The notes: generated from the letters alone by a model not told the origin. 64,000 nt of DNA from Candidatus Sulfotelmatobacter sp. (GCA_035504415.1 DATJRY010000012.1:186001-250000), one strand, 5' to 3'. Counted from the stretch's first letter, positions 2,380 to 18,160 are shown. Translations and numbers: made by a program.

Positions 2380-2399
2380 TCGAGGTACAATCATGGATC

Positions 2400-3203
2400 A
2401 TGCCTGCCGATTTTTCTGCCGCCGAAAAGAAGGCGGAAATGCAACGATTAGCGCTCGCGCTGCCGCTGCATTTCTGCGATCCGGTTATCATCGGTAGACC
2501 ACCCGGTGCAGCCGGCACGTTCGGCCCGAGCGTGTTCTCCGCCACCGTCACTTATCTTGAACTGGGCGGCCGAAAGATAATCCTGACCAACGCGCACGTG
2601 GTGCGCCATGCCCAGGAAGAACGGAATAGAGACGGCGGACTCACCGTCTTCCAGATTCCAGGCAAAACGATCCGAGATCTGGACGAACGGATAATCGACA
2701 TCGATGACGGCAGCGATCTCGCTAATCTCGACGTCTCGGACGTGACGCTGACGCCGCGCGACGTTCCGCAAGAGGAGCGCAAACCGCGTCAATTTTATCA
2801 GCCGGACCATTGGCCGCCCGACTCAGTGGGCGAGCAAGACGTGGTCGCGTACGCTGGCTGGCCGGGTGCTCTACGGAAGGATAGTGCAGACGGCTGGGAC
2901 ATCGAAAGCAACCCGTATTCGATGATCGGCATGACCGTTACACGAGCGATGCCGGATCGATTCAATGTCAAGACCGACCGCTCGGACATCACGCTCGTCA
3001 ACGCCTTTGGTCGGACCGAGGAGGATGAGAAGGACTACGACTTCGGCGGAATGAGCGGAGGCCCGGTGCTTCGCCGCACGCCGCTCCACTACGAACTCGT
3101 CGGCATCATCCAACAATACAACAAGACGGTAGACCAATTTACCTTTACGGCGGCAGAAAATATCAAGCGCGATGGAACGTTGTGGCACAACACGCGCAGA
3201 TGA
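2400..3203 (+). CDS. Cytoplasmic trypsin-like serine protease
   Basis: About 267 residues in the S1/trypsin-like peptidase fold. The triad is readable: His66 in TNAHVV, an Asp near residue 102 in the DLANLDVSDVTL segment, and Ser near 218 in GGMSGGPVL with the oxyanion glycines. There is no signal peptide or membrane segment, so it probably acts inside the cell, unlike HtrA proteases, and no PDZ domain follows. ATG 2400 is preceded by GAGG at 2382. An alternative GTG at 2376 would overlap the upstream stop. GC content is lower than in the flanking lipoproteins. Stand-alone proteases of this type often occur in conflict or stress loci; here the next gene is a damaged antitoxin. Confidence 0.8.
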   Translation: MPADFSAAEKKAEMQRLALALPLHFCDPVIIGRPPGAAGTFGPSVFSATVTYLELGGRKIILTNAHVVRHAQEERNRDGGLTVFQIPGKTIRDLDERIIDIDDGSDLANLDVSDVTLTPRDVPQEERKPRQFYQPDHWPPDSVGEQDVVAYAGWPGALRKDSADGWDIESNPYSMIGMTVTRAMPDRFNVKTDRSDITLVNAFGRTEEDEKDYDFGGMSGGPVLRRTPLHYELVGIIQQYNKTVDQFTFTAAENIKRDGTLWHNTRR

Positions 3204-5235: not shown

Positions 5236-5847
5236 TCACGGAAGCGTGGTGCGTTCAAGCGCTGGAACGCAGTCCAGCGTCTTCGGGGTCGTCAGGTCCC
5301 CCACGAACGTCTGACAAATGTTGATCGTGTCGACGTGCGGGCCGGATCGTGCCTGTAGTATGCCGACGAACGTAACCGTCGATGAGCCATGCTGAAGATG
5401 CTTCACAGCGTCACCAGTCAAGAGCGGGCCGCGAATGCTTAGGCGAATCGAGCCGTCCTTTGGTATTGTTGTTGCCGGGGCCCCCTCAACACGATCGAGC
5501 GCGGATCCTTTCGGCCCGGCAAGCCTGTGGGGCTCATATTCCATCGAAGGTATAGCTTGGTACCGGTATGCACCGCCGAGCTTCACCGATGCGTCGGGAC
5601 CCGTATTGGAGACGCTAAAGACGAGCGTGAAGCTTACGCCCCCCGGCACGTCAGTCTCTTCGACCGCATACGAACCCGCCGATATCGCAACTTGCGGCGA
5701 TGAAACATCGGCGCTCGCTGCGATATCCGGCATCGCCGCAGTGACGATGGCCATCGCAATGCCCACTGGCAGCCGTCGGGGCCAACTGGCGCGCTCTCGA
5801 ACGGTACGCGCTGCGCGCACGGCCAGGGAACCATCATAAATGTGCAT
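5236..5847 (-). CDS. Putative exported protein, unknown function
   Basis: 203 residues. The start at 5847 has GGAGAAG just upstream. An N-terminal basic stretch precedes a hydrophobic segment (VGIAMAIVTAAMPDIAASA, residues about 28-47) that looks like a Sec signal with cleavage after ASA. The mature domain is beta-rich (VSFTLVFSVSNTGPDASVKL), suggesting an immunoglobulin-like or DUF11-like sandwich. It follows the secretin operon on the same strand with a 61-base gap and may be its last gene. No family assigned. Confidence 0.6.
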   Translation of the reverse strand: MHIYDGSLAVRAARTVRERASWPRRLPVGIAMAIVTAAMPDIAASADVSSPQVAISAGSYAVEETDVPGGVSFTLVFSVSNTGPDASVKLGGAYRYQAIPSMEYEPHRLAGPKGSALDRVEGAPATTIPKDGSIRLSIRGPLLTGDAVKHLQHGSSTVTFVGILQARSGPHVDTINICQTFVGDLTTPKTLDCVPALERTTLP

Positions 5848-5908: not shown

Positions 5909-6937
5909 TTAGATCCCTAGATCATCCAGTATCGTGTTCGCCGCCAGGTAAGCGTTAATCTTGCCCCGCGCCGTTATCGCGATAAATGTCTTGCGCGAGG
6001 GAATTGCTATATTTACTGCACTATAGCCCGGGAAGGCTCCGTCGTGCCAGTATTCGGGGTCGGACGCTCCCCGACGAGCTACGAACCAACCAGGCACCTC
6101 AGTCGAGCTGCCGGGAAGGACCATAGTTAGGCTGTTTAGACGCTGCAGCAGGTCGCGCTGACTGAAGAAAAATTCGTCGAATTTTACGATGTCGCTCGCG
6201 GGCGCCAAAACGCCTCCCGTACCGATGAAATCCGGTACGTCAATGGTCACCTGACCGGACTCTGCTGGGAACAGTGCCGCAGCGGGTACGGTCACGGGTA
6301 GCTGGAGCAACGCAGAATTTCTCATTCCCGCGCGCTCGAAGAACGAAAGGAACACCGTCGAGATTTCCGCGCCAGTCTTTTTCTCGATCAGCTTCGCAAG
6401 AACGATGTAGTCAGTGCTTGAGTAGCGCATTTCGGAACCTGGCGCGAACGCCAGTGGCAACGCCAACAATACGGAAAACGCGCATTCACTCAGGTCTTGC
6501 GGTGCGGCCGAAAGAACGTCTTGATAGCCAGACGAGTGCAGTAGGAGGTCGCGTGTGCGCACGGTTGCCCCTCCTGGGATTCCCGGCGCTATATCGGCAA
6601 TTGGGCCTTCGATCTCCGAAGTCGAAAATAAACCAAGTGCAATTGCCGCGGTTATGCTCTTACCAACGGAGCCTACTGCAAATCGGTCGTCTTTGCGCGT
6701 GTTGAACGCGAAGTCGAGGCTACCGTCCTCGGGCGTTGCCAGAGCGACCTGAACGGGTAGACCGTGTGCGAAGCGCTCGACATCGTCTCGGACGATATCG
6801 CCGACAAGGGGCCGACCTGGCGACGCTAACGCTGTGTTAGCGGAGTTGACAGAGTCTCCGATTAAGGCAACGCAGAGGAGGCCTCGAAGGGCTGCTGATA
6901 CCGCGACGAGCCCAACCGCAGAACCGCGATCCTTCAT
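5909..6937 (-). CDS. Serine beta-lactamase/transpeptidase-family hydrolase (class C-like)
   Basis: 342 residues with an N-terminal hydrophobic signal or anchor (residues about 8-38). The beta-lactamase (AmpC/EstB/PBP4*) fold is shown by the nucleophile motif SVGK (Ser90, Lys93), a tyrosine motif RYSS near residue 175 where YxN would be typical, and HDG near 306 in place of KTG. This is the pattern of periplasmic D-amino-acid esterases, peptidases or penicillin-binding relatives rather than resistance enzymes. The ATG at 6937 overlaps the secretin stop (ATGA), so it is co-translated with the secretin. A role in trimming peptidoglycan around the secretin channel is possible but unproven. Confidence 0.85.
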   Translation of the reverse strand: MKDRGSAVGLVAVSAALRGLLCVALIGDSVNSANTALASPGRPLVGDIVRDDVERFAHGLPVQVALATPEDGSLDFAFNTRKDDRFAVGSVGKSITAAIALGLFSTSEIEGPIADIAPGIPGGATVRTRDLLLHSSGYQDVLSAAPQDLSECAFSVLLALPLAFAPGSEMRYSSTDYIVLAKLIEKKTGAEISTVFLSFFERAGMRNSALLQLPVTVPAAALFPAESGQVTIDVPDFIGTGGVLAPASDIVKFDEFFFSQRDLLQRLNSLTMVLPGSSTEVPGWFVARRGASDPEYWHDGAFPGYSAVNIAIPSRKTFIAITARGKINAYLAANTILDDLGI

Positions 6938-8355
6938 GAGCCGTCGCCAAGCGCCGATGGGTCGATGACATGGGGGGTGATCGTAATGTAGAGGTTTGTT
7001 CTCTGATGCGTGGAGTGCTCGACGGAAAAGAGCTTGCCCAAGATCGGCAAATAGCCGAGAACAGGCAGGTGAGCGACTTGCGAGATGTCGCTTTCTTGGA
7101 CCAACCCGCCGAGTACGAAGCTGTGCGCGTCCCTGACATTCGCAATCGCCGTAATTGTGCGCTCGCTGACTTCTGGAGCACTTTGCACGTATCCCGTGAC
7201 GCTCGATACTGTTGCCTCAATGTTCACGACAACTACGCCGTTCGGTCCTACGCGAGGCCGAATCGCGAGCGTGACTCCGACATTGACATACTGCACTTGC
7301 TGCTGGGTTACAGCAGTCGCGCCAGGATACGTGACAGCGGTAAAGACCGGAATAGCATCGCCCGTCTGAATGAAGGCCGGAACCGAGCTTTGTGTCGCTA
7401 TGCGAGGGCGGGCCAAGATCTTTCCCCGTCCGTTCTGTATTTCGGCATATAGTGCGGCCTGGAAAGACGCGCTGGAGCTTGGAGCTGCTAAGTTATGCAC
7501 CGCCATCGTCGCCGTTCCGGCATTCCCGCCAGCCGAAAAGTCGATGCCGAGATCTCGCGCACCCTGCTCGTCCAATTCGACGATCTCAGCGTCGATCATG
7601 ACACTTGGAGCCGGAACGTCAAGTTGCGAAATCGTATCCTCAAAGTCGCGAATCTCGTCATCGGTCCCCGTCAGAATCAAAGCATTCAGCCGTTGATCCA
7701 CTGATATTTGCGATGACACGTGCTCTGCCGGCAAACTTTCGCGATCGCTTGTTGGCGTGATGGCGGTCTGCACAGGCGTACCCAGCCCGGCAACGGTTCC
7801 CCCGGATACGCCACCGGGGATCGTCGGGAGCGAGTCGTTGGAAGATAGCTGAGCGTTTGGGACGAGAGCGTCCGCGATCTCTCCGACTCCAGCGTACTTA
7901 AGACGTATGACCACACGCCTCTGCCCATGATCGAGCCGCGTGCTCGAGTTGCCGACGGACGGCGGACCGCTCAGTACTGGACCAGCGGCCGATAGGACGA
8001 GATACCGTCCCGAGCGTCGCACGCTAATTTGCGAGCCTGAGGCGGCCGCAACATCGATGGCCAGGTTGTCATTGATCTGCTCGAACGCAAGGCTCGTGAT
8101 CGCCTTGGTCACATCTTTGATCGCTTGGCCAACGCCAGGTGCGAGGCGGCAGTGCGCAATCACAACCCGCGTCGCTACTCCCATCGGCGGCTGATCAAGT
8201 GCGTAGGAGAAGTGCTCGTCGGTCACTTGGATGCGAAGTTCCGCACCGGAAGTTGAGATCGCGGATACTTCCTCAAATCCGGGAGTAGCGCCCAGGGGAG
8301 ACGGTGTGCTTGCCGCAAGCACGGCCGCAAGCACACACGGGGCCCAGGTTATCAC
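6934..8355 (-). CDS. Secretin-family outer-membrane channel protein
   Basis: 473 residues. Order: signal peptide (residues 1-23), an AMIN-like beta domain (about 30-130), an N1/NolW-type ring domain (VVIRLKYAGVGEIADALVP, and ISVDQRLNALILTGTDDEI), then the secretin beta-barrel domain. The last contains VNVGVTLAIRPRVG and ends with the diagnostic LPVLGYLPILGKLF signature near the C-terminus. This is the PilQ/GspD superfamily, outer membrane, forming a multimeric gate. No pilus, ATPase or other secretion gene is adjacent. Start is GTG 8355, overlapping the upstream stop. AMIN domains usually bind peptidoglycan. Confidence 0.92.
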   Translation of the reverse strand: MITWAPCVLAAVLAASTPSPLGATPGFEEVSAISTSGAELRIQVTDEHFSYALDQPPMGVATRVVIAHCRLAPGVGQAIKDVTKAITSLAFEQINDNLAIDVAAASGSQISVRRSGRYLVLSAAGPVLSGPPSVGNSSTRLDHGQRRVVIRLKYAGVGEIADALVPNAQLSSNDSLPTIPGGVSGGTVAGLGTPVQTAITPTSDRESLPAEHVSSQISVDQRLNALILTGTDDEIRDFEDTISQLDVPAPSVMIDAEIVELDEQGARDLGIDFSAGGNAGTATMAVHNLAAPSSSASFQAALYAEIQNGRGKILARPRIATQSSVPAFIQTGDAIPVFTAVTYPGATAVTQQQVQYVNVGVTLAIRPRVGPNGVVVVNIEATVSSVTGYVQSAPEVSERTITAIANVRDAHSFVLGGLVQESDISQVAHLPVLGYLPILGKLFSVEHSTHQRTNLYITITPHVIDPSALGDGS

Positions 8356-10115
8356 AAGCTTCGGGTGCCGAGTATTGCTCCGCTGAACGCGTCGACGGCT
8401 ATTATCAAGGTCCCGTTAACGGTGAACAGCCACGCTGACTGACCCGTCGTCGTCGGGTCAGTCACTCCGCCAAACCAATAACCTGCGGTGTAGCTGGTGA
8501 CGACGTCTCCGGCCGGAAGGCTCAGCGAGGCGGTGTAAGCATCAATCGACTGCTGTCCGGTCGAGCGGCCGGCGCTCTGTTCAGTTCGCGTTGTCGATTG
8601 TGCGACGGGTGCATGCCACTGGTAGAAGGCATAGGAGATATTCGGCGTGTGCGTGATTGTGGTTGTCTCGGCTTTGCAGACCTCCACCGGGTGAGGGTTC
8701 GGGGGGATCAATACCGACTCCCAGCCGCCTGTGCACGTTACAGTTGATACGGTATCGTCGTCGACGAAGACAACAATCTGGTCGCCAAGCGTTGGCACGG
8801 TGTGGCGCCAGGTCAGAGAGTACCCGGTAATCGTCGTGCTGCCGGACGAAGGATTATAAACGTAATCCGCATTCTCCGACGCTAAGACCGCGTCCGCGGG
8901 AAGTCCCAGCGATTGTTGCACGAAGGTCGTTGCGGCCGTCTGCGCCGTTGCGGCGGAAAAGCCGACGGTGTTGTAGTAGGCATACCCGTGGAACGAGAGC
9001 GCTCCCGAGGTTGCGTAGTTGTGGAGCACGCCGACCCCTGTGGGCGTGTATAAGTTAATTAGTTGGCCGTTGTTCGTTTCTGTAATGCTGCTGACATAAG
9101 GCGTCGCCTCGTTAATCAAGGTCTGGTCGTTGACGACTGCGGGTGCCGTTACGACCGGGTTCAAGGTAAACGTCGTGGCCGACACTGACTCGGGCGGAAC
9201 GCTTATCGCGCCGAGACTTCCAGACCAGTACCAAATCGGATTGCCGCTCGCCGTTGCGAATTGAAACGCGCTTCCCGGTGCGCCAAATGTGTCGTTGAGC
9301 GCTTGACTGTCTTCCATCTCGGAATAGCCCACGACGAGACCCGCGTCGCGTGCTGAAAACGCCCATGCATTGTGCACGGTCGTCGGCGGATGGGTATTGC
9401 TGTAGAGGTAACCGGGAAGAGCGTGCGCCACCTCCGGCGCAGTATCAATGTTCAAGTCGCAGTAGAGTCGGTCGCCGTTGAAACACCCACTTGGCGTCGC
9501 CGGCGGCCCTTGCCAAAAACCGTAGATGCCATGCAAGCCCTTGTACACGAAGGCGTCATGCCACTCCGCGGTAACCTGCGGTTGGTTGGCAAGATACGAG
9601 GATGGAGGCGCGACCGTATCCGAGCTGTCCGCGAAGATCCACTTTAGGCGCGATCCAGCTGGAATCGGAATCCCCTTTGGATTCGCATAGTCTCCGACAT
9701 CATCTCCCACGCCCCACGCCTTCTGGTCGATTGGGGCACCAGAGACACAGTAGTTGGAAAAGAGCAAAACGCCGTCAATACCATGCCCGGTGTAAAAAAT
9801 CGCATCGTCGGTGTTCTCGTTGTTATAGATATCCGCTGCCGTGACGCTCGCGTTTGTGTTCTGATCCGTTACGGTCCAGCCGTCCGTTCTCATCTGGCCG
9901 GCAAAGTCAGCGGCGGCGCCTTCCAGGACGTTACCGAAATCCTCTCCGCACGGGTCGTAGTAGTCGTCCCCAAGAGCGGCAACATTCCCCACGGCTGCAC
10001 CGTTTTCGGCGGATTGCGTTGCGGTGATCAGCAAGCCAACCAGCGAGCAGCCAGTCAGCGCGGGCGTGGTCAGAATCGCAATCGCGGCAGTCAATTTTAT
10101 GAGTCGCATCGTCAC
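8352..10115 (-). CDS. Large lipoprotein with caspase-like (DUF6345-like) and PepSY-like regions
   Basis: 587 residues. It has a lipobox at Cys23 (TPALTGC). The N-terminal half resembles DUF6345/caspase-fold proteins: DDAIFYTGHGIDG places a GHG at about residues 110-112 and LKWIFADSSDT near 165 occupies the position where the catalytic Cys would sit, here Ser. A GLHGIYGFW segment follows. The C-terminal half carries two PepSY-like stretches (TAATTFVQQSLGLPADAV, and a final WLFTVNGTLIIAVDAFSGAI). Start GTG 10115 overlaps the stop of the AMIN gene. I infer a periplasmic-facing, lipid-anchored partner of the secretin; protease activity is doubtful without the Cys. Confidence 0.7.
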   Translation of the reverse strand: MTMRLIKLTAAIAILTTPALTGCSLVGLLITATQSAENGAAVGNVAALGDDYYDPCGEDFGNVLEGAAADFAGQMRTDGWTVTDQNTNASVTAADIYNNENTDDAIFYTGHGIDGVLLFSNYCVSGAPIDQKAWGVGDDVGDYANPKGIPIPAGSRLKWIFADSSDTVAPPSSYLANQPQVTAEWHDAFVYKGLHGIYGFWQGPPATPSGCFNGDRLYCDLNIDTAPEVAHALPGYLYSNTHPPTTVHNAWAFSARDAGLVVGYSEMEDSQALNDTFGAPGSAFQFATASGNPIWYWSGSLGAISVPPESVSATTFTLNPVVTAPAVVNDQTLINEATPYVSSITETNNGQLINLYTPTGVGVLHNYATSGALSFHGYAYYNTVGFSAATAQTAATTFVQQSLGLPADAVLASENADYVYNPSSGSTTITGYSLTWRHTVPTLGDQIVVFVDDDTVSTVTCTGGWESVLIPPNPHPVEVCKAETTTITHTPNISYAFYQWHAPVAQSTTRTEQSAGRSTGQQSIDAYTASLSLPAGDVVTSYTAGYWFGGVTDPTTTGQSAWLFTVNGTLIIAVDAFSGAILGTRSL

Positions 10116-10900
10116 GGACCCCCAAAAGGATTGACTGGATAGCTCGCCGCCTTTGCTTGTGCGGCGGTGGCAAGTGCATCTACCTCACCGAGGAGCACGC
10201 CGGTCGCGCGATCGAAAGTCAGCGTACGCATCCTGGTCGCGACGACAGGGTCATGTGGAACTGCTCCATGCGTAATCATTGTGACCGATACCGTGGGACC
10301 TGTACTAAACCGATTCGTCACTATTCGCGGTCCGGCAGCTTGACTGAGCACGCGGAACGGTTCACTCGGATACGTCCTGTGGTCCAGATGGGAATGGCGC
10401 TCAGCAGCGACTAAGCGTGTCGCTTCGCCGACGAAGTAGCCGGTCGTAATTGACGTCTTTGACATTCGATTCTGCCGCGCAATTGTTGCACGGCTGCGCG
10501 CGATTGCAGCCTTCAGGACGGCCCTTGAGGTCGTGATAATTGTAAGTGTGTTCCGACCTCTCACGAAGGTCAGGGCGACGCTCGACAAACCGCTAATGTC
10601 GAGGTCTGCTCCGTGCTGCGCGAGGCGAAGCGTCTCTCCACCAACTGCGATGCTAGCGGGCGCGCCGGCATTGACGACATTGAAGATCCGAACCTGAGTC
10701 GCACCGGCCGAGAACGCCTGGTACGCCGGGTCCCGTGAGAATTTGAGAACGACAGCGGTGGCACGTCCGGAGCCGATTCTCACGCCTGTTAAGGCGTTTT
10801 GGCTTGCGGCGCCTGCAGTGCCACCTGAGAGCAGCGTCGCTGCGAGGACGACGGAAAATACGCGTAGCGTCCTACGCGTGAATGTCGGAGATGCCAGCAC
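10112..10900 (-). CDS. Exported AMIN-like domain protein, first gene of secretin operon
   Basis: 262 residues. Sec signal at residues about 10-32 (SVVLAATLLSGGTAGA). The mature N-terminal half is AMIN-like: LTGVRIGSGRATAVVLKFSR followed by a paired segment with QVRIFNVVNA, as in proteins that localise to the periplasm through peptidoglycan binding. The C-terminal half is unassigned and has a beta pattern (VTMITHGAVPHDPVVATRMR). It leads a four-gene overlapping operon and has a near-consensus promoter 107 bases upstream. Start GTG 10900. The AMIN call rests on pattern, not on strong motifs. Confidence 0.65.
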   Translation of the reverse strand: MLASPTFTRRTLRVFSVVLAATLLSGGTAGAASQNALTGVRIGSGRATAVVLKFSRDPAYQAFSAGATQVRIFNVVNAGAPASIAVGGETLRLAQHGADLDISGLSSVALTFVRGRNTLTIITTSRAVLKAAIARSRATIARQNRMSKTSITTGYFVGEATRLVAAERHSHLDHRTYPSEPFRVLSQAAGPRIVTNRFSTGPTVSVTMITHGAVPHDPVVATRMRTLTFDRATGVLLGEVDALATAAQAKAASYPVNPFGGP

Positions 10901-11006
10901 CCGTGCACCGATCCTTTCTGAGCGGCCAAGTCATTAGTCCCCGCTCTAAGCATGCCGCGAGAATGGACTAAAGGCCGCAGGAGTCTATAGAGGCAGCCAG
11001 GACAGA

Positions 11007-11035
11007 ATGGTACGACCGCACGCAGCCCTTGTCAA
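11007..11035 (-). promoter_or_regulatory. Sigma-70-type promoter of the secretin operon
   Basis: On the minus strand TTGACA (11035-11030), a 17-base spacer and TACCAT (11012-11007) form a near-consensus housekeeping promoter about 107 bases upstream of the GTG at 10900. The long leader between them contains no gene. Confidence 0.6.
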
Positions 11036-11057
11036 GCATTCGGCGCTGCCGAAACTG

Positions 11058-12437
11058 CTAGCGAGCCACGCGACGTGCGCGACGTCCAATCCATGACCGG
11101 TGGAAAGTCTCCGAACGCCGGCGCGCGTCCGCTACAGCTTCCGGTGCTCGGGTAAGTTCACCGATCGCGAGAGCCGTCCGCGCTGCGCGCCAATCGTGGC
11201 CAAGGTCGTCCCAAATCTTCAGCGCGCTGCGCCACGCAGTGGCGGCGCGCTCCTGGTTCCCTTCGGCAGCGAGCACGGCGCCCTCGGCGTCGCGCTCCAG
11301 CGCGGTCTGCCTGCGGTCGTTCGAGCCGAGCAGCATGAGGTTCGCTGGCATTGCCCGAGCCCGGTCGTACGTATGCAGCCACGACCGCGCGACGGAAGCG
11401 TCTTCACGCGCATACGCTTCCACGACGCCGAGCAGCACCGTCGCCTCCTCGCCGCAGACGTGCTCCCAGTCGATCGACGCGGCGAGGTGGTATGCGCGCC
11501 CCATTTCCTCGCGGTGGATAACCTTCTGCCCGAGCTCGGCGGCCAGGTAGGCACGGTCGAGCGTCGAGGCAAGACGGTATGGGACGGTCGGCGCGAGGTC
11601 CGCGGCGTCGCGGAAGCGGGCGAATGCGCGCAGTGCGTCGCCGGTGAGCGCGGCATGCCACCCGAGCGCACGCCGCACCACCCACCGCGCTTCGGCCGTC
11701 TCGGGAGTCCATGCGAACAGTTCGGATTGCACGCTGAGAAACTCGGCGTGTTCACTAAGGTGCAGGTCCCACACGAGCGGAGCGAAGTTGCGCAGCAACG
11801 AGGCACGCACCCACTCGTCATGCACCGCTTGCGCCCGCGGCTCATCGCCTCCTTCGGCGCGCCATGCTGCGTCGAGAAGATCGGCTTGCATGAGATAGTC
11901 CTCGCGGCTTGCGGCGACGAGTGAGAGCGTCTCGAGCAACTGCGCGCGGACGAGAGGGAGAGGGCGCTGGTACCCGTCGGCCTCAGCGCGCGGTATCTCG
12001 AGCCCTTGAAGCGCGAGGTCTTGCGCGGCAACTAGATCGCGGCGATTCCAGGCGGCGGCCGCCCGGTAGAGGGCGAGTTCGGCGGCGACCGCGCCGCCGA
12101 CGCTGTTGGCAAGGAGCTGGGCTGCAGCGTCGTGCTTCTGCGATTTTTCGGCCTCGCCGACACGCAGATAGGCCGCCGACGCAAGAACGTGATGCTCGGC
12201 CTTGGCCGCGTCCTCGAGGTTCGCGATCGCGCGTCCCTCAAGTGTTTCGAGGCTGCGGTGCGGATCGCGCAGGCGCAAGAAACACCTTGCTCGCAGGGCA
12301 GTCGCTGCCGGATCAGAGTTGCGGCCAATGGCGCCGAGCGCTTCCGCGTTGCGGGCGGCCAGGAACAGGCGCTGGGCATCGGCGAGCGTCCGTTCTCGTC
12401 CGAGGTATCGAAGGTTTGAGTTCCTAGCCATCTTCAC
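11058..12437 (-). CDS. TPR-repeat protein, putative peptide-responsive regulator
   Basis: 459 residues, all-helical, with tetratricopeptide-like repeats throughout (for example ALRARCFLRLRDPHRSLETL, EKSQKHDAAAQLL, GDALRAFARFRDAADLAP, ERAATAWRSALKIWDDLG). It has no signal peptide, membrane segment or helix-turn-helix, so it is a cytoplasmic scaffold or sensor, comparable in size to Rap-type TPR receptors. GTG 12437 and ATG 12431 are both possible starts and neither has a strong Shine-Dalgarno site. It lies directly downstream, on the same strand, of two tiny hydrophobic peptides and a strong RNA hairpin, and divergent to an XRE regulator. Function by peptide sensing is an inference from that context. 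Confidence 0.75.
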   Translation of the reverse strand: MKMARNSNLRYLGRERTLADAQRLFLAARNAEALGAIGRNSDPAATALRARCFLRLRDPHRSLETLEGRAIANLEDAAKAEHHVLASAAYLRVGEAEKSQKHDAAAQLLANSVGGAVAAELALYRAAAAWNRRDLVAAQDLALQGLEIPRAEADGYQRPLPLVRAQLLETLSLVAASREDYLMQADLLDAAWRAEGGDEPRAQAVHDEWVRASLLRNFAPLVWDLHLSEHAEFLSVQSELFAWTPETAEARWVVRRALGWHAALTGDALRAFARFRDAADLAPTVPYRLASTLDRAYLAAELGQKVIHREEMGRAYHLAASIDWEHVCGEEATVLLGVVEAYAREDASVARSWLHTYDRARAMPANLMLLGSNDRRQTALERDAEGAVLAAEGNQERAATAWRSALKIWDDLGHDWRAARTALAIGELTRAPEAVADARRRSETFHRSWIGRRARRVAR

Positions 12438-13296: not shown

Positions 13297-14187
13297 CTAT
13301 ACTCGACTGATTGTAAGCGCGTCCTGGCCGTCGGTTATATAAACACGGTCGAACTGCCCGGGATCCACGCGCTCCAACCTTACTCGCTGCAAAGGCTCAA
13401 AGGATGGAGTCACTGCCGTGATTGCGAGCCAAAGTGGACGAACGTTGTAGGTCTTCGTATTCTTCCGCTCGATGGCATCGACAATCATGGGAGCCTGATC
13501 TGGAATTGCGCGAGTTGAAACGAGCCACGCGATCCGTATGTCCGCTTCGGGGTTCGGGCCGCTGAACGTCTCTACGTGTCCGACGTAGCTTCCGAGCGGG
13601 TCGGATCGAGGATCGAGAAGGTCGCGTGAAGTCCAATCGTGCGCCTTTATCCGTGAAACGATTTCGTCGGCCAGCGCCGCAAGATCACGCCTGCGTGGCA
13701 TTGCCACCATCCCGAAACTTATACGCTTCTTGATCGCGATCGCTTTCAATGCAGGATCTCTGTCCACGCGCTCCTTGAGAAAAACTGCAAGCTCACGTTG
13801 TGCCGCGGTGAAGTCCGCTTCGGGCCGAACCTGAGTCACTTCGAGCGCCGCGTCCAGTCCATCCACCCTCACCGCGAGGTCTGGATGCGGAGGGGTAAAT
13901 CCCGTATGAATCGCGACGGTGGACACGCCCGCAATCGCGAAGGCGCGGACTGCCCCGAAGACCTCAGCGCCCTCTTTGGTCGCGGTGTCCTTTCTGGATT
14001 CGAGCGGCACTTCATAAGCTGACCAAAGGACTCCATCTATCGTATAGGTCGCTGCAAGGTCGTTAAGAGCGTCACGCGTCGCGCCTCGGACTAGGCGTGC
14101 GACGACTAAGCCGGCCGGCGTCGCATATTCGAGCGGCTCTAATTCTTCGGCTGTGAATTCGCGGCCGATTCTGATATCCCAAGACAT
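13297..14187 (-). CDS. Hypothetical protein, possible nuclease-like fold
   Basis: About 296 residues from ATG 14187; a TTG at 14205 would add six residues. No signal or membrane segment. The segment HPDLAVRVDGLDAALEVTQV, with an acidic residue, a short strand and E-V-T, is reminiscent of PD-(D/E)XK nuclease cores, and AIAIKKRISFGMVAMPRR adds basic residues, but no complete motif can be proved. Codon use and GC (lower, AT-rich third positions) differ from the core genome. It is divergent from the winged-helix gene at 14285. Function unknown; accessory gene. Confidence 0.6.
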   Translation of the reverse strand: MSWDIRIGREFTAEELEPLEYATPAGLVVARLVRGATRDALNDLAATYTIDGVLWSAYEVPLESRKDTATKEGAEVFGAVRAFAIAGVSTVAIHTGFTPPHPDLAVRVDGLDAALEVTQVRPEADFTAAQRELAVFLKERVDRDPALKAIAIKKRISFGMVAMPRRRDLAALADEIVSRIKAHDWTSRDLLDPRSDPLGSYVGHVETFSGPNPEADIRIAWLVSTRAIPDQAPMIVDAIERKNTKTYNVRPLWLAITAVTPSFEPLQRVRLERVDPGQFDRVYITDGQDALTISRV

Positions 14188-14284
14188 CCCACGTTGGTAC
14201 GCCAAAGCTATCCCGCGGTCCGGTCACGACCCGTCGCGGTTTCGTGCCAAGACGCTGGCATCGTACCACTCCTTACTTAGTACG

Positions 14285-15607
14285 ATGGATCAGCGCCGAT
14301 CGACGATCCGCGGTGTCTTTGGACGCGGCGTTCGCGAGCGCGTCATAGCGGTGCTCGCCAAATACGAACGAGCGCATCTTGCGTCTATGGCGGCCGCTAT
14401 CGGCGCGTCGAACCTGCGCACCGCGTCGGCCGTACAGTTCTTTGAATCTCGCGGGCTCATTCGGACCGACCGCCGCTCGCCGGCACGGACGTGGGTCGCA
14501 CTGGCCGAGGGCCCACTTCGCGAGCAGCTTGTAGCGTTCGGGCGGCGGATCGCCGCGCTCGACGACATCCGGCCCATCTTGCCTCGCCCCCGCGCCGCAC
14601 CGCCAAGTCGCGAGGTGCGCACGCAAGCGGACGACCTGTTCGTCACCAGGTCCGCGACGAAAATCCTCGTCCACGTCGCGCTCGCCGGCGAAACAGACGC
14701 GGCGGAGCTGCACCGTCGTCTCGGGATCGACGAGTCCGTCGTGCGAGCCACGGTTGGTCGGCTCGTCCGCGACGGCATCCTACGCCGCCGCAGGCGCGAT
14801 TGGAAACGCATCCCGATCGTGCTCGACGAGCGCCATCCGGCGGCCCCCGAGATCCGCGACCTGATCCTTGCCGTCGCGAAGATTCGGCCGCAGGCCCGAG
14901 CGATCGTCGGCGCCTCGCGGCGCGGCCATGCTCCGCCCGTACCGGTACGGAAGCCGAAAGCGACTTTCGCGCGAACCGGCCTGGGCCGGGCCGTCGACCT
15001 GCTGCCGATTTTCGGTCCCGGTCAGGCGCGTGTGCTCGCCGCCCTCGCGTCCCGCGGACCGCTCAACGGCCTCGCACTCGCCAAGCGCGTCGGTGTCAAC
15101 CCGACCGCCGCCCGGATCGTCGCGAGGACCCTGGCCGCCGCCGGCATGGTGCGCGCAACGCCAACTCGGTCCGGCACCGTCGTCGAGTACGCTCTGGACC
15201 CGTGCTATGCTCTCGCGCCCGAGCTGTGGGCGCTGGTGACGGCCGCCTGTCGGGCCTCGCGTCTACGCGTCGAGGTCGGGGCGTCGGCAGGACCCCGGCG
15301 GTCTGGGAAACCCGGCTGGCCGGCAGACCATCGAGGCCGCGCGGCGCTCGCGCTCGCCCTGGCGGGCGCGCGCGCCGCGGACCTCGCTGAGATCGCGAAG
15401 GCGACGCGGGCGAAGCGACGTCAGGTAGCCGCGCGACTGGCGCTGCTCCGGGACGCCGGATGGATCGAGCTGGAAATGGTCGGCGCGAGGACGGTTGCCC
15501 ATTCCGGGCACCCGCCGGTCGGACCGGAAGCCAAGACTCTCCTGGACGCGATGCGAGCAGCCGGTCTGAAGCCGCTGGACATCCGCGTCATGGGCGACGT
15601 GTCCTAA
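14285..15607 (+). CDS. Protein with about four tandem winged-helix domains
   Basis: 440 residues from ATG 14285; the open frame extends further upstream but would run into the divergent gene. At least four MarR/ArsR-type winged helices can be read. They lie at residues about 15-90 (LASMAAAIGASNLRTASAVQ), 125-200 (TDAAELHRRLGIDESVVRAT), 250-330 (NGLALAKRVGVNPTAARIVA) and 355-415 (ADLAEIAKATRAKRRQVAAR). Each pairs a recognition helix with a wing such as GLIRTDRRSPARTWVAL. No effector domain is present, so it may be a multi-site DNA-binding protein. The next gene is a smaller relative, and a phased operator-like array separates them. Confidence 0.7.
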   Translation: MDQRRSTIRGVFGRGVRERVIAVLAKYERAHLASMAAAIGASNLRTASAVQFFESRGLIRTDRRSPARTWVALAEGPLREQLVAFGRRIAALDDIRPILPRPRAAPPSREVRTQADDLFVTRSATKILVHVALAGETDAAELHRRLGIDESVVRATVGRLVRDGILRRRRRDWKRIPIVLDERHPAAPEIRDLILAVAKIRPQARAIVGASRRGHAPPVPVRKPKATFARTGLGRAVDLLPIFGPGQARVLAALASRGPLNGLALAKRVGVNPTAARIVARTLAAAGMVRATPTRSGTVVEYALDPCYALAPELWALVTAACRASRLRVEVGASAGPRRSGKPGWPADHRGRAALALALAGARAADLAEIAKATRAKRRQVAARLALLRDAGWIELEMVGARTVAHSGHPPVGPEAKTLLDAMRAAGLKPLDIRVMGDVS

Positions 15608-16495: not shown

Positions 16496-18160
16496 TCACG
16501 GCGGAACGTAAGTGTAGAATTCGGATATTACGGCGAAATTCTGGAACAAAACGCGCCGCAATAGCCGGCCGAATCGTTTCAGAAACGGGACCTGATCGCC
16601 ATGTGGGTGGGTGAGCACGAGCAGGTCGATCCGCCGGATCCCAGCGCGGCGCAGGTAACCGAGGACGATCCGTTCGCCGACGAGCTCCGCCGGTGATTCG
16701 CCGCCCTCTCCCGGGCCGCGTTCGAGGCGCCCGCCGGTATCGATCAGGATCGTGTGCCCGCGCGGCGTGCGGATGACGATCCCATCGCCCTGACCAACGT
16801 CGAGCATGGTGATCGTCAGCCGGCCGTCGGGGAGGCGCAGCGTCGTCGCAAGCACGCCGGCGCTCGCGAGGCCGAGCACCAGCATCGCGGCGCGAACGTG
16901 CCGCCGGAGCAACCCCGCGGCCACCAGCGCCGCGCCGTCGTAGGCGACGATCGCGAACGCCGGCGGCGGCGCGACCGTGATGCGCGCGCCGGGCAGCGCG
17001 GCGACGTGGTGCACGACGGCGACGATGGCATCGAGGTCCCAGCGCGCCGCGAGCGCCGCGATGCCGCCGAGCGCCGGGGCCGGTGCGAGAGCGAGCGCCG
17101 CGATACCACAGACCATCGCGAGTCCGGTCGCCGGCACGACCACCGCGTTGGCGAGGACCGCGTACGGCGCCAGCACCGCGAACGTCGCCGCGCTCAGCGG
17201 CCACACCCCGAGCTGCGTCGCGATCGTCAGCGCCAGCGCCTCGCGGACCCGCTCGGGGAGCCGGGTGCGCTCCAGCGCGCGCGCGACCGGCGCGGCGAAC
17301 AGCACGATCGCGGCCACGCACGAAAACGAGAGCGCGAACGACACGCTGCGCACCGCCGCCGGCCACAGCGCGGCGACGACGATCGCCGCCAGCGCCAGCG
17401 CGTTCCACGACACGACGCGTGCCCCCCACGCGCGCGCGACGAGCGCCAGCGAGACCATCACCGCCGCACGCTGCGAGGGCAGGTGCGCGCCGCTCAGCCA
17501 GGCGTAGGCGACGACGCACGGGATCGCGCCGAGCGCGGCCGGAACGCGCGGCACGCCGCCGAGCCGCAACAGCAGCAGCACGAGTCCGGCGACGACGCCC
17601 AGGTGCAGCCCGGCGGTGACCAGCACGTGGACGGTGCCGGTCGCCTGAAAGTCGTCGCGCAGTGCGTGCGGCAGCGTTCCGCGCTCACCCCACAGCGCGC
17701 CGGCCAGCACGGTCGCCTCCGGCTCGGGCAGCAGCGACCGCAGGCGTTGCGAGAGCGCCGCGCGCAGGCGCGCCGCCCAGTTGCGCGCGTCGCGCGGATC
17801 CGGTGACGCACGCGCGAGAACCCGGCCCGCCACCAACTCGCCGGCCAATCCTTCGGCGACCGCGATTGCGCGGCGCGACGGCTCGCCCGGATTGCGCGGC
17901 TCGTCGAACGGGGACAGCCGTCCGCGCAGCGTCAGCCGGTCGCCCGGCGCGACCTCGCCGCTCACGCTCGCGCGCACGACCAGCCCGCCCTCGAGCGCGA
18001 ACGGGAAGCTCGCGCCCTCGCCGCTGCGGCGGACGTCGCCGACGACCGTGCCCGACCAGCGCGCCGTCGGCGTTTGCGTCTCGACGAGCGGCGCCGTGCC
18101 GCGCCAGGCCAACAGCGCGACGAACGCGACGGCCGGCAGAAGGAGGGGCGCGCGTTGCAC
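16496..18160 (-). CDS. comEC: ComEC-type DNA-uptake channel with truncated C-terminal hydrolase domain
   Basis: 554 residues from GTG 18160. An N-terminal OB-like DUF4131 region (about 30-130) is followed by the ComEC/Rec2 competence membrane domain with many transmembrane helices (about 150-430). The metallo-beta-lactamase-like domain starts normally (ITMLDVGQGDGIVI, HTILIDTGG, LLVLTHPHGD). Directly after HPHGD the expected histidine is replaced by Gln and the sequence turns into an unrelated tail of about 30 residues ending in FYTYVPP. The rest of the hydrolase domain, usually 80-100 residues, is missing. The break coincides with the edge of the accessory region. ComEC moves single-stranded DNA across the inner membrane. 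Confidence 0.85.
   Translation of the reverse strand: MQRAPLLLPAVAFVALLAWRGTAPLVETQTPTARWSGTVVGDVRRSGEGASFPFALEGGLVVRASVSGEVAPGDRLTLRGRLSPFDEPRNPGEPSRRAIAVAEGLAGELVAGRVLARASPDPRDARNWAARLRAALSQRLRSLLPEPEATVLAGALWGERGTLPHALRDDFQATGTVHVLVTAGLHLGVVAGLVLLLLRLGGVPRVPAALGAIPCVVAYAWLSGAHLPSQRAAVMVSLALVARAWGARVVSWNALALAAIVVAALWPAAVRSVSFALSFSCVAAIVLFAAPVARALERTRLPERVREALALTIATQLGVWPLSAATFAVLAPYAVLANAVVVPATGLAMVCGIAALALAPAPALGGIAALAARWDLDAIVAVVHHVAALPGARITVAPPPAFAIVAYDGAALVAAGLLRRHVRAAMLVLGLASAGVLATTLRLPDGRLTITMLDVGQGDGIVIRTPRGHTILIDTGGRLERGPGEGGESPAELVGERIVLGYLRRAGIRRIDLLVLTHPHGDQVPFLKRFGRLLRRVLFQNFAVISEFYTYVPP

What the first reader, a model, noticed from the sequence alone, without database searches (positions are those of the whole stretch)
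5909..10900. Orphan secretin operon with caspase-like lipoprotein and beta-lactamase-fold enzyme
Four genes overlap by four bases each: AMIN protein, GHG lipoprotein, AMIN-secretin, SxxK serine hydrolase. Secretins normally come with pilus or secretion machinery, and here none is adjacent. The set has a peptidoglycan-binding module, a gate and a putative wall-trimming enzyme, so it could be a self-contained export port for an unknown substrate.
Basis: partly seen in the sequence, partly recalled or inferred. Interest (0 to 1): 0.62.

Follow-up and report, generated by a model that had tools for sequence, protein, structure and literature searches.

The report
Mobile outer-membrane port with hydrolases
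A poorly known bacterium carries a transferable gene cassette that pairs an outer-membrane pore, of the kind normally used by pili and secretion machines, with its own set of exported enzymes, and related pores persist even in a relative that has lost its pilus machine, so this may be a simpler way of moving or placing enzymes at the cell surface.

Summary
The operon is real: four intact minus-strand genes, 10900 to 5909, overlapping by 4 bp each: AMIN-like secreted protein, lipoprotein (LIP), short secretin, S12 (SxxK) serine hydrolase. The genome is a Ca. Eremiobacterota member. LIP's N-domain has a caspase/gingipain (clan CD) fold, but an invariant Ser replaces the catalytic Cys. The secretin subfamily occurs at about 40 loci in the family, with AMIN-like, N1 and secretin domains and no recognisable N0, the domain that docks to inner-membrane platforms. 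Only one neighbourhood read holds a pilus/T2SS gene (an ATPase at a contig end). One relative has lost its whole type IV pilus locus with both flanks intact, yet keeps two such secretins. Two classes exist: lone, resident secretins, and low-GC, apparently mobile cassettes joining the secretin to variable exported hydrolases (LIP, SGNH esterase, S12, metzincin, subtilase) and serpin-like proteins. LIP sits beside such a secretin at 10 of 11 complete loci, the metzincin at 2 of 2. Best reading: a platform-independent, wall-anchored outer-membrane port serving its co-encoded hydrolases. Architecture, mobility and independence from pili are supported; the export function and its energy source are inferred.

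The parts
10112..10900 (-). gene 1: secreted AMIN-like protein (262 aa) with a C-terminal TFDRATGVLLG...PVNPF motif shared by first or partner genes of related cassettes
   Evidence: ORF; no Pfam family; C-terminal motif shared with partner genes in L020, L023, L026, L024, L027, L028, L031, L032; AMIN-likeness weak
8352..10115 (-). gene 2: lipoprotein LIP (587 aa), clan CD (caspase/gingipain) fold N-domain with invariant His111 and Ser165 in the Cys position; C-terminal domain weakly PepSY-like in relatives
6934..8355 (-). gene 3: short secretin (473 aa): signal peptide, AMIN-like domain, N1 (Secretin_N), secretin barrel; no recognisable N0
5909..6937 (-). gene 4: S12 serine hydrolase (342 aa; SVGK, YSS, HDG), nearest solved structure Streptomyces R61 DD-peptidase
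   Evidence: unique to this genome in its family
5236..5847 (-). possible fifth gene: secreted 203-aa protein, 61 bp downstream of gene 4 behind a purine-rich ribosome-binding-like site
   Evidence: weak cupredoxin-like hit only, E 0.085
11058..12437 (-). upstream TPR-type protein (459 aa), relative of LuxR-HTH regulators beside the secretins in L029 and L036, but ending just before the HTH
10901..11057 (-). intergenic region with the best sigma-70-like match (TTGACA-17-TACCAT at 11035-11007); candidate operon promoter
   Evidence: consensus scan only, 4 found against 2.4 expected

Best explanation
This is a horizontally acquired cassette built around a stand-alone secretin. The secretin ring sits in the outer membrane and is probably tied to the cell wall by its AMIN-like domain and by the AMIN-like protein of gene 1, instead of being docked through N0 to an inner-membrane ATPase platform. 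The co-encoded enzymes (the caspase-fold lipoprotein LIP and the S12 hydrolase here; SGNH esterase, metzincin or subtilase in relatives) reach the periplasm by the Sec/lipoprotein route, and the secretin is their dedicated outer-membrane port or surface scaffold, a two-step route with no ATPase of its own. Shown: gene order, domain architecture, caspase fold with Cys-to-Ser change, recurrence, low-GC mobility signature, absence of pilus genes nearby, and persistence of such secretins after deletion of a pilus locus. Inferred: ring formation, wall binding, passage of the enzymes through the pore, and the absence of a remote energy source.
For: LIP lies beside a secretin of this subfamily at 10 of 11 complete loci, including a second copy in the same genome (L020). 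A metzincin family found in 2 of 99 genomes lies beside such a secretin in both; a subtilase with an intact triad follows the secretin in L029; SGNH hydrolases with intact Ser/Asp/His motifs follow or precede it in 7 loci. The cargo is variable and non-homologous while the port is constant. Cassettes are low in GC against flanks (mean -6.7 points, n = 11), lone secretins are not (+0.1, n = 14; Mann-Whitney P = 0.0003). No N0/STN in 24 of 24; N0 binds the inner-membrane partner GspC/GspB or PilP (PMC9239104, PMC5285504). G065 has lost its T4P locus but keeps two intact members. The window's genome has its own T4P secretin with PilM, PilN and pilin, plus PilB/T/C elsewhere.
Against: No experiment shows passage of any of these enzymes. 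Most members of the subfamily are lone and have no cargo gene. LIP's Cys-to-Ser change may make it inactive. The S12 gene is present in one genome only. LIP or LIP-like proteins without a secretin exist (L025 with a serpin; L090, L087-L089). A pore without an energy source is hard to reconcile with known secretin systems, and deletion of N0 from OutD disturbs targeting and gating. One locus (L044) has a PilB-like ATPase 2.8 kb away at a contig end.
Confidence: 0.45

Rival explanations
1. The hydrolases are assembly factors, not cargo: SGNH or S12 edits peptidoglycan (de-acetylation or peptide trimming) so that the secretin ring can pass the wall, and LIP guides or gates the ring. The true substrate is encoded elsewhere.
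For: Two unrelated serine hydrolases, both of kinds that often act on the wall, occupy the same 3' slot; secretins are known to bind the wall through AMIN domains (PMC5285504).
Against: Metzincins and a subtilase also take part; lone secretins of the same family do without any hydrolase; no wall activity was tested.
Confidence: 0.2
2. LIP is a pseudoprotease: a catalytically dead caspase-fold lipoprotein acting as pilotin, plug or receptor for the secretin, and the cassette has a structural rather than proteolytic role.
For: Ser in the Cys position in every member read; a lipoprotein next to a secretin recalls pilotins; pseudo-orthocaspases with a Tyr-Ser pair are known (PMC6426788).
Against: The His is kept and the Ser is invariant rather than drifting; LIP sits beside serpin or serpin-like genes in four loci, which suggests protease chemistry nearby; another small lipoprotein (L020, L038, L043, L059) looks more like a pilotin.
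Confidence: 0.2
3. It is an alternative secretin for the genome's own type IV pilus, like the orphan XqhA secretin that works with a T2SS in Pseudomonas (from memory).
For: The genome has PilB, PilT, PilC, PilM and a pilin, so a platform is available in trans.
Against: No N0 domain seen; the T4P has its own PilQ; G065 deleted its T4P locus but kept two of these secretins, and G047 has one and no T2SSE/T2SSF at all.
Confidence: 0.1
4. It is a remnant of a filamentous phage whose pIV-like secretin was kept.
For: The PHROG pIV family matches the secretin, E 8.6e-45; the cassette is low in GC.
Against: Any secretin matches pIV; no other phage gene nearby; best phage record only 29% over 35% of the protein; pIV carries N0 (from memory), this does not.
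Confidence: 0.03

Closest known systems
Type IV pilus secretin PilQ
   Same: AMIN-like N-terminus (weak), Secretin_N and secretin domains
   Different: no N0 seen, one N1 only, no PilM-N-O-P, PilB/C or pilins nearby; co-encoded with exported hydrolases
Type II secretion system (GspD and its exported hydrolases)
   Same: outer-membrane secretin with Sec-exported hydrolases as likely clients
   Different: no GspE/F, no pseudopilins, no GspC-docking N0; cargo genes sit in the same operon and vary from cassette to cassette
Orphan secretins such as XqhA (from memory); secretin-like rings without an inner-membrane part on Flavobacterium johnsoniae outer-membrane tubes (PMC8455137)
   Same: secretin away from its machine, or seen without an inner-membrane energy source
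   Different: here a family-wide N0-less subfamily with a recurrent mobile enzyme cassette
Clan CD proteases (gingipain, caspase, separase, CHAT) and DUF6345
   Same: fold and GHG histidine; some LIP relatives pass the DUF6345 cut-off
   Different: Ser instead of catalytic Cys; lipoprotein with an extra C-terminal domain
Pseudo-orthocaspases (PMC6426788)
   Same: loss of the Cys nucleophile, replaced by Ser
   Different: those replace His too (Tyr-Ser); LIP keeps His

Membership tests
Secretin superfamily | secretin domain PF00263 over cut-off | tested here: met
   131 bits against 27.5; 24 of 24 relatives match
T2SS / T4P / Tad secretin system | T2SSF platform and T2SSE ATPase genes in the locus | tested here: not met
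   no T4P gene in the fetched neighbourhoods except one PilB-like gene at a contig end; T2SSF on the same contig once, 51 kb away
T2SS / T4P / Tad secretin system | N0 (STN) domain for docking to the inner-membrane complex | tested here: not met
   no STN in 24 of 24 at E 0.1; no room between the AMIN-like region and N1; the genome's own PilQ shows a sub-threshold STN hit. A divergent N0 unseen by Pfam is not strictly excluded
PilQ | N-terminal AMIN domain | tested here: inconclusive
   profile hit to M. xanthus PilQ AMIN1 E 0.0011; Pfam AMIN in 2 of 24, best E 0.083
Clan CD peptidase | caspase/gingipain fold | tested here: met
   VIA-align Z 12.6 RgpB, 12.5 CHAT, 11.7 separase; model pLDDT 62, pTM 0.72
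Clan CD peptidase | catalytic His and Cys | tested here: not met
   His111 invariant, but Ser165 in the Cys position in all members read
DUF6345 (PF19872) | score over cut-off | tested here: inconclusive
   window 19.5 bits against 26.9; relatives L029 40.3 and L095 30.4 pass
S12 serine hydrolase | PF00144 and SxxK, Y-x-S/N, H/K-x-G motifs | tested here: met
   83 bits; SVGK 90, YSS 172, HDG 298
Filamentous phage (inovirus) secretin module | Zot/pI and coat genes next to the secretin | tested here: inconclusive
   no phage family in six genes except the secretin (and S12 as a tail lysin) by PHROGs; Zot not searched genome-wide

The most novel reading that the evidence does not exclude
A secretin-based outer-membrane export route that needs no inner-membrane ATPase platform: an N0-less secretin subfamily resident across one diderm family, which has given rise to mobile cassettes carrying their own exported enzymes, among them a serine version of a caspase-fold protease.
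Probability: 0.3. Interest if true: 0.85.

Novelty: new variant of a known kind. Interest (0 to 1): 0.62.

Why it matters
Every well-studied secretin is the outer part of an envelope-spanning machine powered from the inner membrane. A subfamily without the docking domain, kept after a pilus locus has been deleted and packaged in mobile cassettes with its own enzymes, asks directly whether a secretin can work alone. It also offers a defined gene set and a phylum with a cultured member (Vulcanimicrobium alpinum, PMC9758169) for testing it.

Tried and rejected
AlphaFold2 on full-length LIP with 4 sequences gave pLDDT 37 and was not used; the N-domain alone worked. PDB sequence search with LIP or its profile found nothing useful. 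Defence-system models do not match the four genes. No LIP relative in plasmids. Literature searches for 'orphan secretin', DUF6345 and Eremiobacterota + secretin found no prior description, but the library lacks subscription journals. My gene calls come from a simple codon model, which misses low-GC genes unless length is weighted; some starts (L022, L023) are uncertain. The comparison group of canonical secretin contigs was picked by eye; one search is the sound test. The tree joins the window's secretin with L041 on long branches, so its place is unsure.

Full report
WHAT IS THERE. The window is part of contig C12 of a 4.17-Mb genome whose relatives are labelled Candidatus Eremiobacterota. 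Four minus-strand genes run from 10900 to 5909 with 4-bp overlaps GTGA, GTGA and ATGA. Gene 1 (262 aa) is a secreted protein without a Pfam family. Gene 2 (587 aa) is a lipoprotein (lipobox LTGC) with a GHG motif. Gene 3 is a 473-aa secretin (PF00263, E 3.7e-38; Secretin_N, E 9e-9). Gene 4 is an S12 hydrolase (PF00144, E 2.9e-23) with SVGK, YSS and HDG motifs, nearest in solved structures to the R61 DD-peptidase. The block has GC 0.586 against 0.707 for the window beyond 16 kb and GC3 0.60-0.69 against about 0.9, the mark of recent acquisition. A 203-aa secreted protein 61 bp downstream may be a fifth gene.

THE LIPOPROTEIN. It belongs to a family found in 13 genomes of this bacterial family, with faint C-terminal matches in a sister family. 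Eleven aligned members share invariant G110-H111-G112 and S165. AlphaFold2 on residues 42-312 with four sequences gave pLDDT 62 and pTM 0.72. The structure search is dominated by clan CD proteases: gingipain RgpB Z 12.6 over 183 residues, SAVED-CHAT 12.5, separase 11.7, legumain, MALT1, caspases. His follows strand 3 and Ser165 follows strand 4, the places of the catalytic His and Cys. Three DUF6345 relatives in the same phylum have Cys there (SCE, SCE, NCG), and a DUF6345 score over cut-off is reached by LIP relatives L029 and L095. So the caspase-like reading is right, but the nucleophile is Ser throughout. Whether this is a serine version or a dead enzyme is open. Pseudo-orthocaspases with Tyr-Ser are a known precedent (PMC6426788).

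THE SECRETIN SUBFAMILY. A search of 99 family genomes found about 40 close relatives and a separate, lower-scoring set of ordinary secretins. Twenty-four aligned members all have Secretin and Secretin_N; none has STN/N0 at E 0.1, and the space before N1 is taken by a beta-rich domain whose profile matches PilQ AMIN1 weakly (E 0.0011). N0 is the docking site for GspC/GspB or PilP (PMC9239104, PMC5285504). About 590 kb of neighbourhoods plus the window, 654 kb in all, hold no PilC, PilT, PilM, PilN, PilO or pilin, and one PilB-like gene at a contig end in L044. The window's genome has a separate, ordinary type IV pilus: PilQ, PilM, PilN and a pilin at C10:35-42 kb, PilB, PilT and PilC at C10:232-236 kb.

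A NATURAL PILUS DELETION. G065 (96% complete) has no T2SSF and only a marginal T2SSE hit. In its sister G066 the T4P locus lies between ftsA-ftsZ-thyX and an HU gene followed by a serine dehydratase. In G065 both flanks are present on one contig and the pilus locus is gone, except for about 96 codons of the pilQ 3' end. G065 still has two intact members of the subfamily (C22 lone, C13 beside a metzincin). G047 (91% complete) has one such secretin and no T2SSE or T2SSF; there, incompleteness of the assembly cannot be excluded.

TWO CLASSES. Lone secretins sit in conserved surroundings (for example beside the suf genes), match their flanks in GC (+0.1 points, n = 14) and mostly fall in clades of their own. 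Cassette secretins are scattered over the tree, some on long branches, and the cassette is lower in GC than its flanks (mean -6.7 points, n = 11; P = 0.0003). LIP is beside a subfamily secretin at 10 of 11 complete loci, in both orders (LIP-secretin; secretin-LIP in L020, the second copy in this genome). Partners: a small secreted protein ending in a Y/F-D-x-x-T-G-x-L motif; SGNH hydrolases with GxSxTxG and DxxHP (seven loci); serpin-like proteins between LIP and secretin (L024, L027, L029); a true serpin next to LIP in L025; a subtilase in L029; metzincin lipoproteins in L041 and L052, a family present in just these two of 99 genomes and beside the secretin in both; LuxR-type regulators near four cassettes, of which the window's upstream gene 11058-12437 is a relative lacking the HTH. 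The S12 gene is unique to this genome.

HOW IT MOST LIKELY WORKS. The constant element is a wall-anchored outer-membrane ring without an inner-membrane dock; the variable elements are Sec-exported or lipid-anchored hydrolases, several with intact active sites, and protease-inhibitor-like genes. The simplest reading is a port or surface scaffold dedicated to those enzymes, without an ATPase of its own. Shown are architecture, association, mobility and independence from pili; ring formation, wall binding, passage of enzymes and energy source are inferred. Chief rivals are wall-editing enzymes that help the ring to assemble, a pseudoprotease LIP acting as pilotin or plug, and use by the T4P in trans. 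Secretin-like rings without an inner-membrane part have been seen on Flavobacterium johnsoniae outer-membrane tubes (PMC8455137), with no function assigned.

VERDICT. I rate it a new variant of a known kind, with a possible step further if the independence from inner-membrane machinery is shown by experiment.

Noticed in passing
L100:16900-17240 (G065:C11) against L101 (G066:C21): Deletion of the whole type IV pilus locus with both flanks kept and a pilQ 3' remnant left.
   Followed up: yes
window 16496-18160 (-): ComEC-like DNA-uptake channel gene by eye (high GC, resident), about 5.6 kb from the cassette; a link to DNA uptake was not tested.
   Followed up: no
window about 2394-3203 (+): Reads like a trypsin-type serine peptidase (LTNAHVV ... 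GGMSGGPV); a frame-extended ORF hides its true start.
   Followed up: no
window 13297-15607: Two genes overlapping at their 5' ends on opposite strands (302 aa without family; 484 aa with MarR/TrmB-like winged helices); the first is low in GC and may belong to the same island.
   Followed up: partly
L020:7232-7699, L038:8623-9090, L043:8535-8999, L059:6413-6874: Small lipoproteins (about 155 aa) with a similar C-terminal end next to these secretins: pilotin candidates; none is in the window operon.
   Followed up: partly
L029:15548-16378: A caspase-family protein with intact-looking YSGHG ... SDSC lies about 3.7 kb from the LIP gene of G072.
   Followed up: no
L096 and L097: DUF6345 proteins with a Cys nucleophile and PHGNWW motif in other Eremiobacterota, not beside a secretin in the short stretches read: likely active relatives of LIP.
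   Followed up: partly
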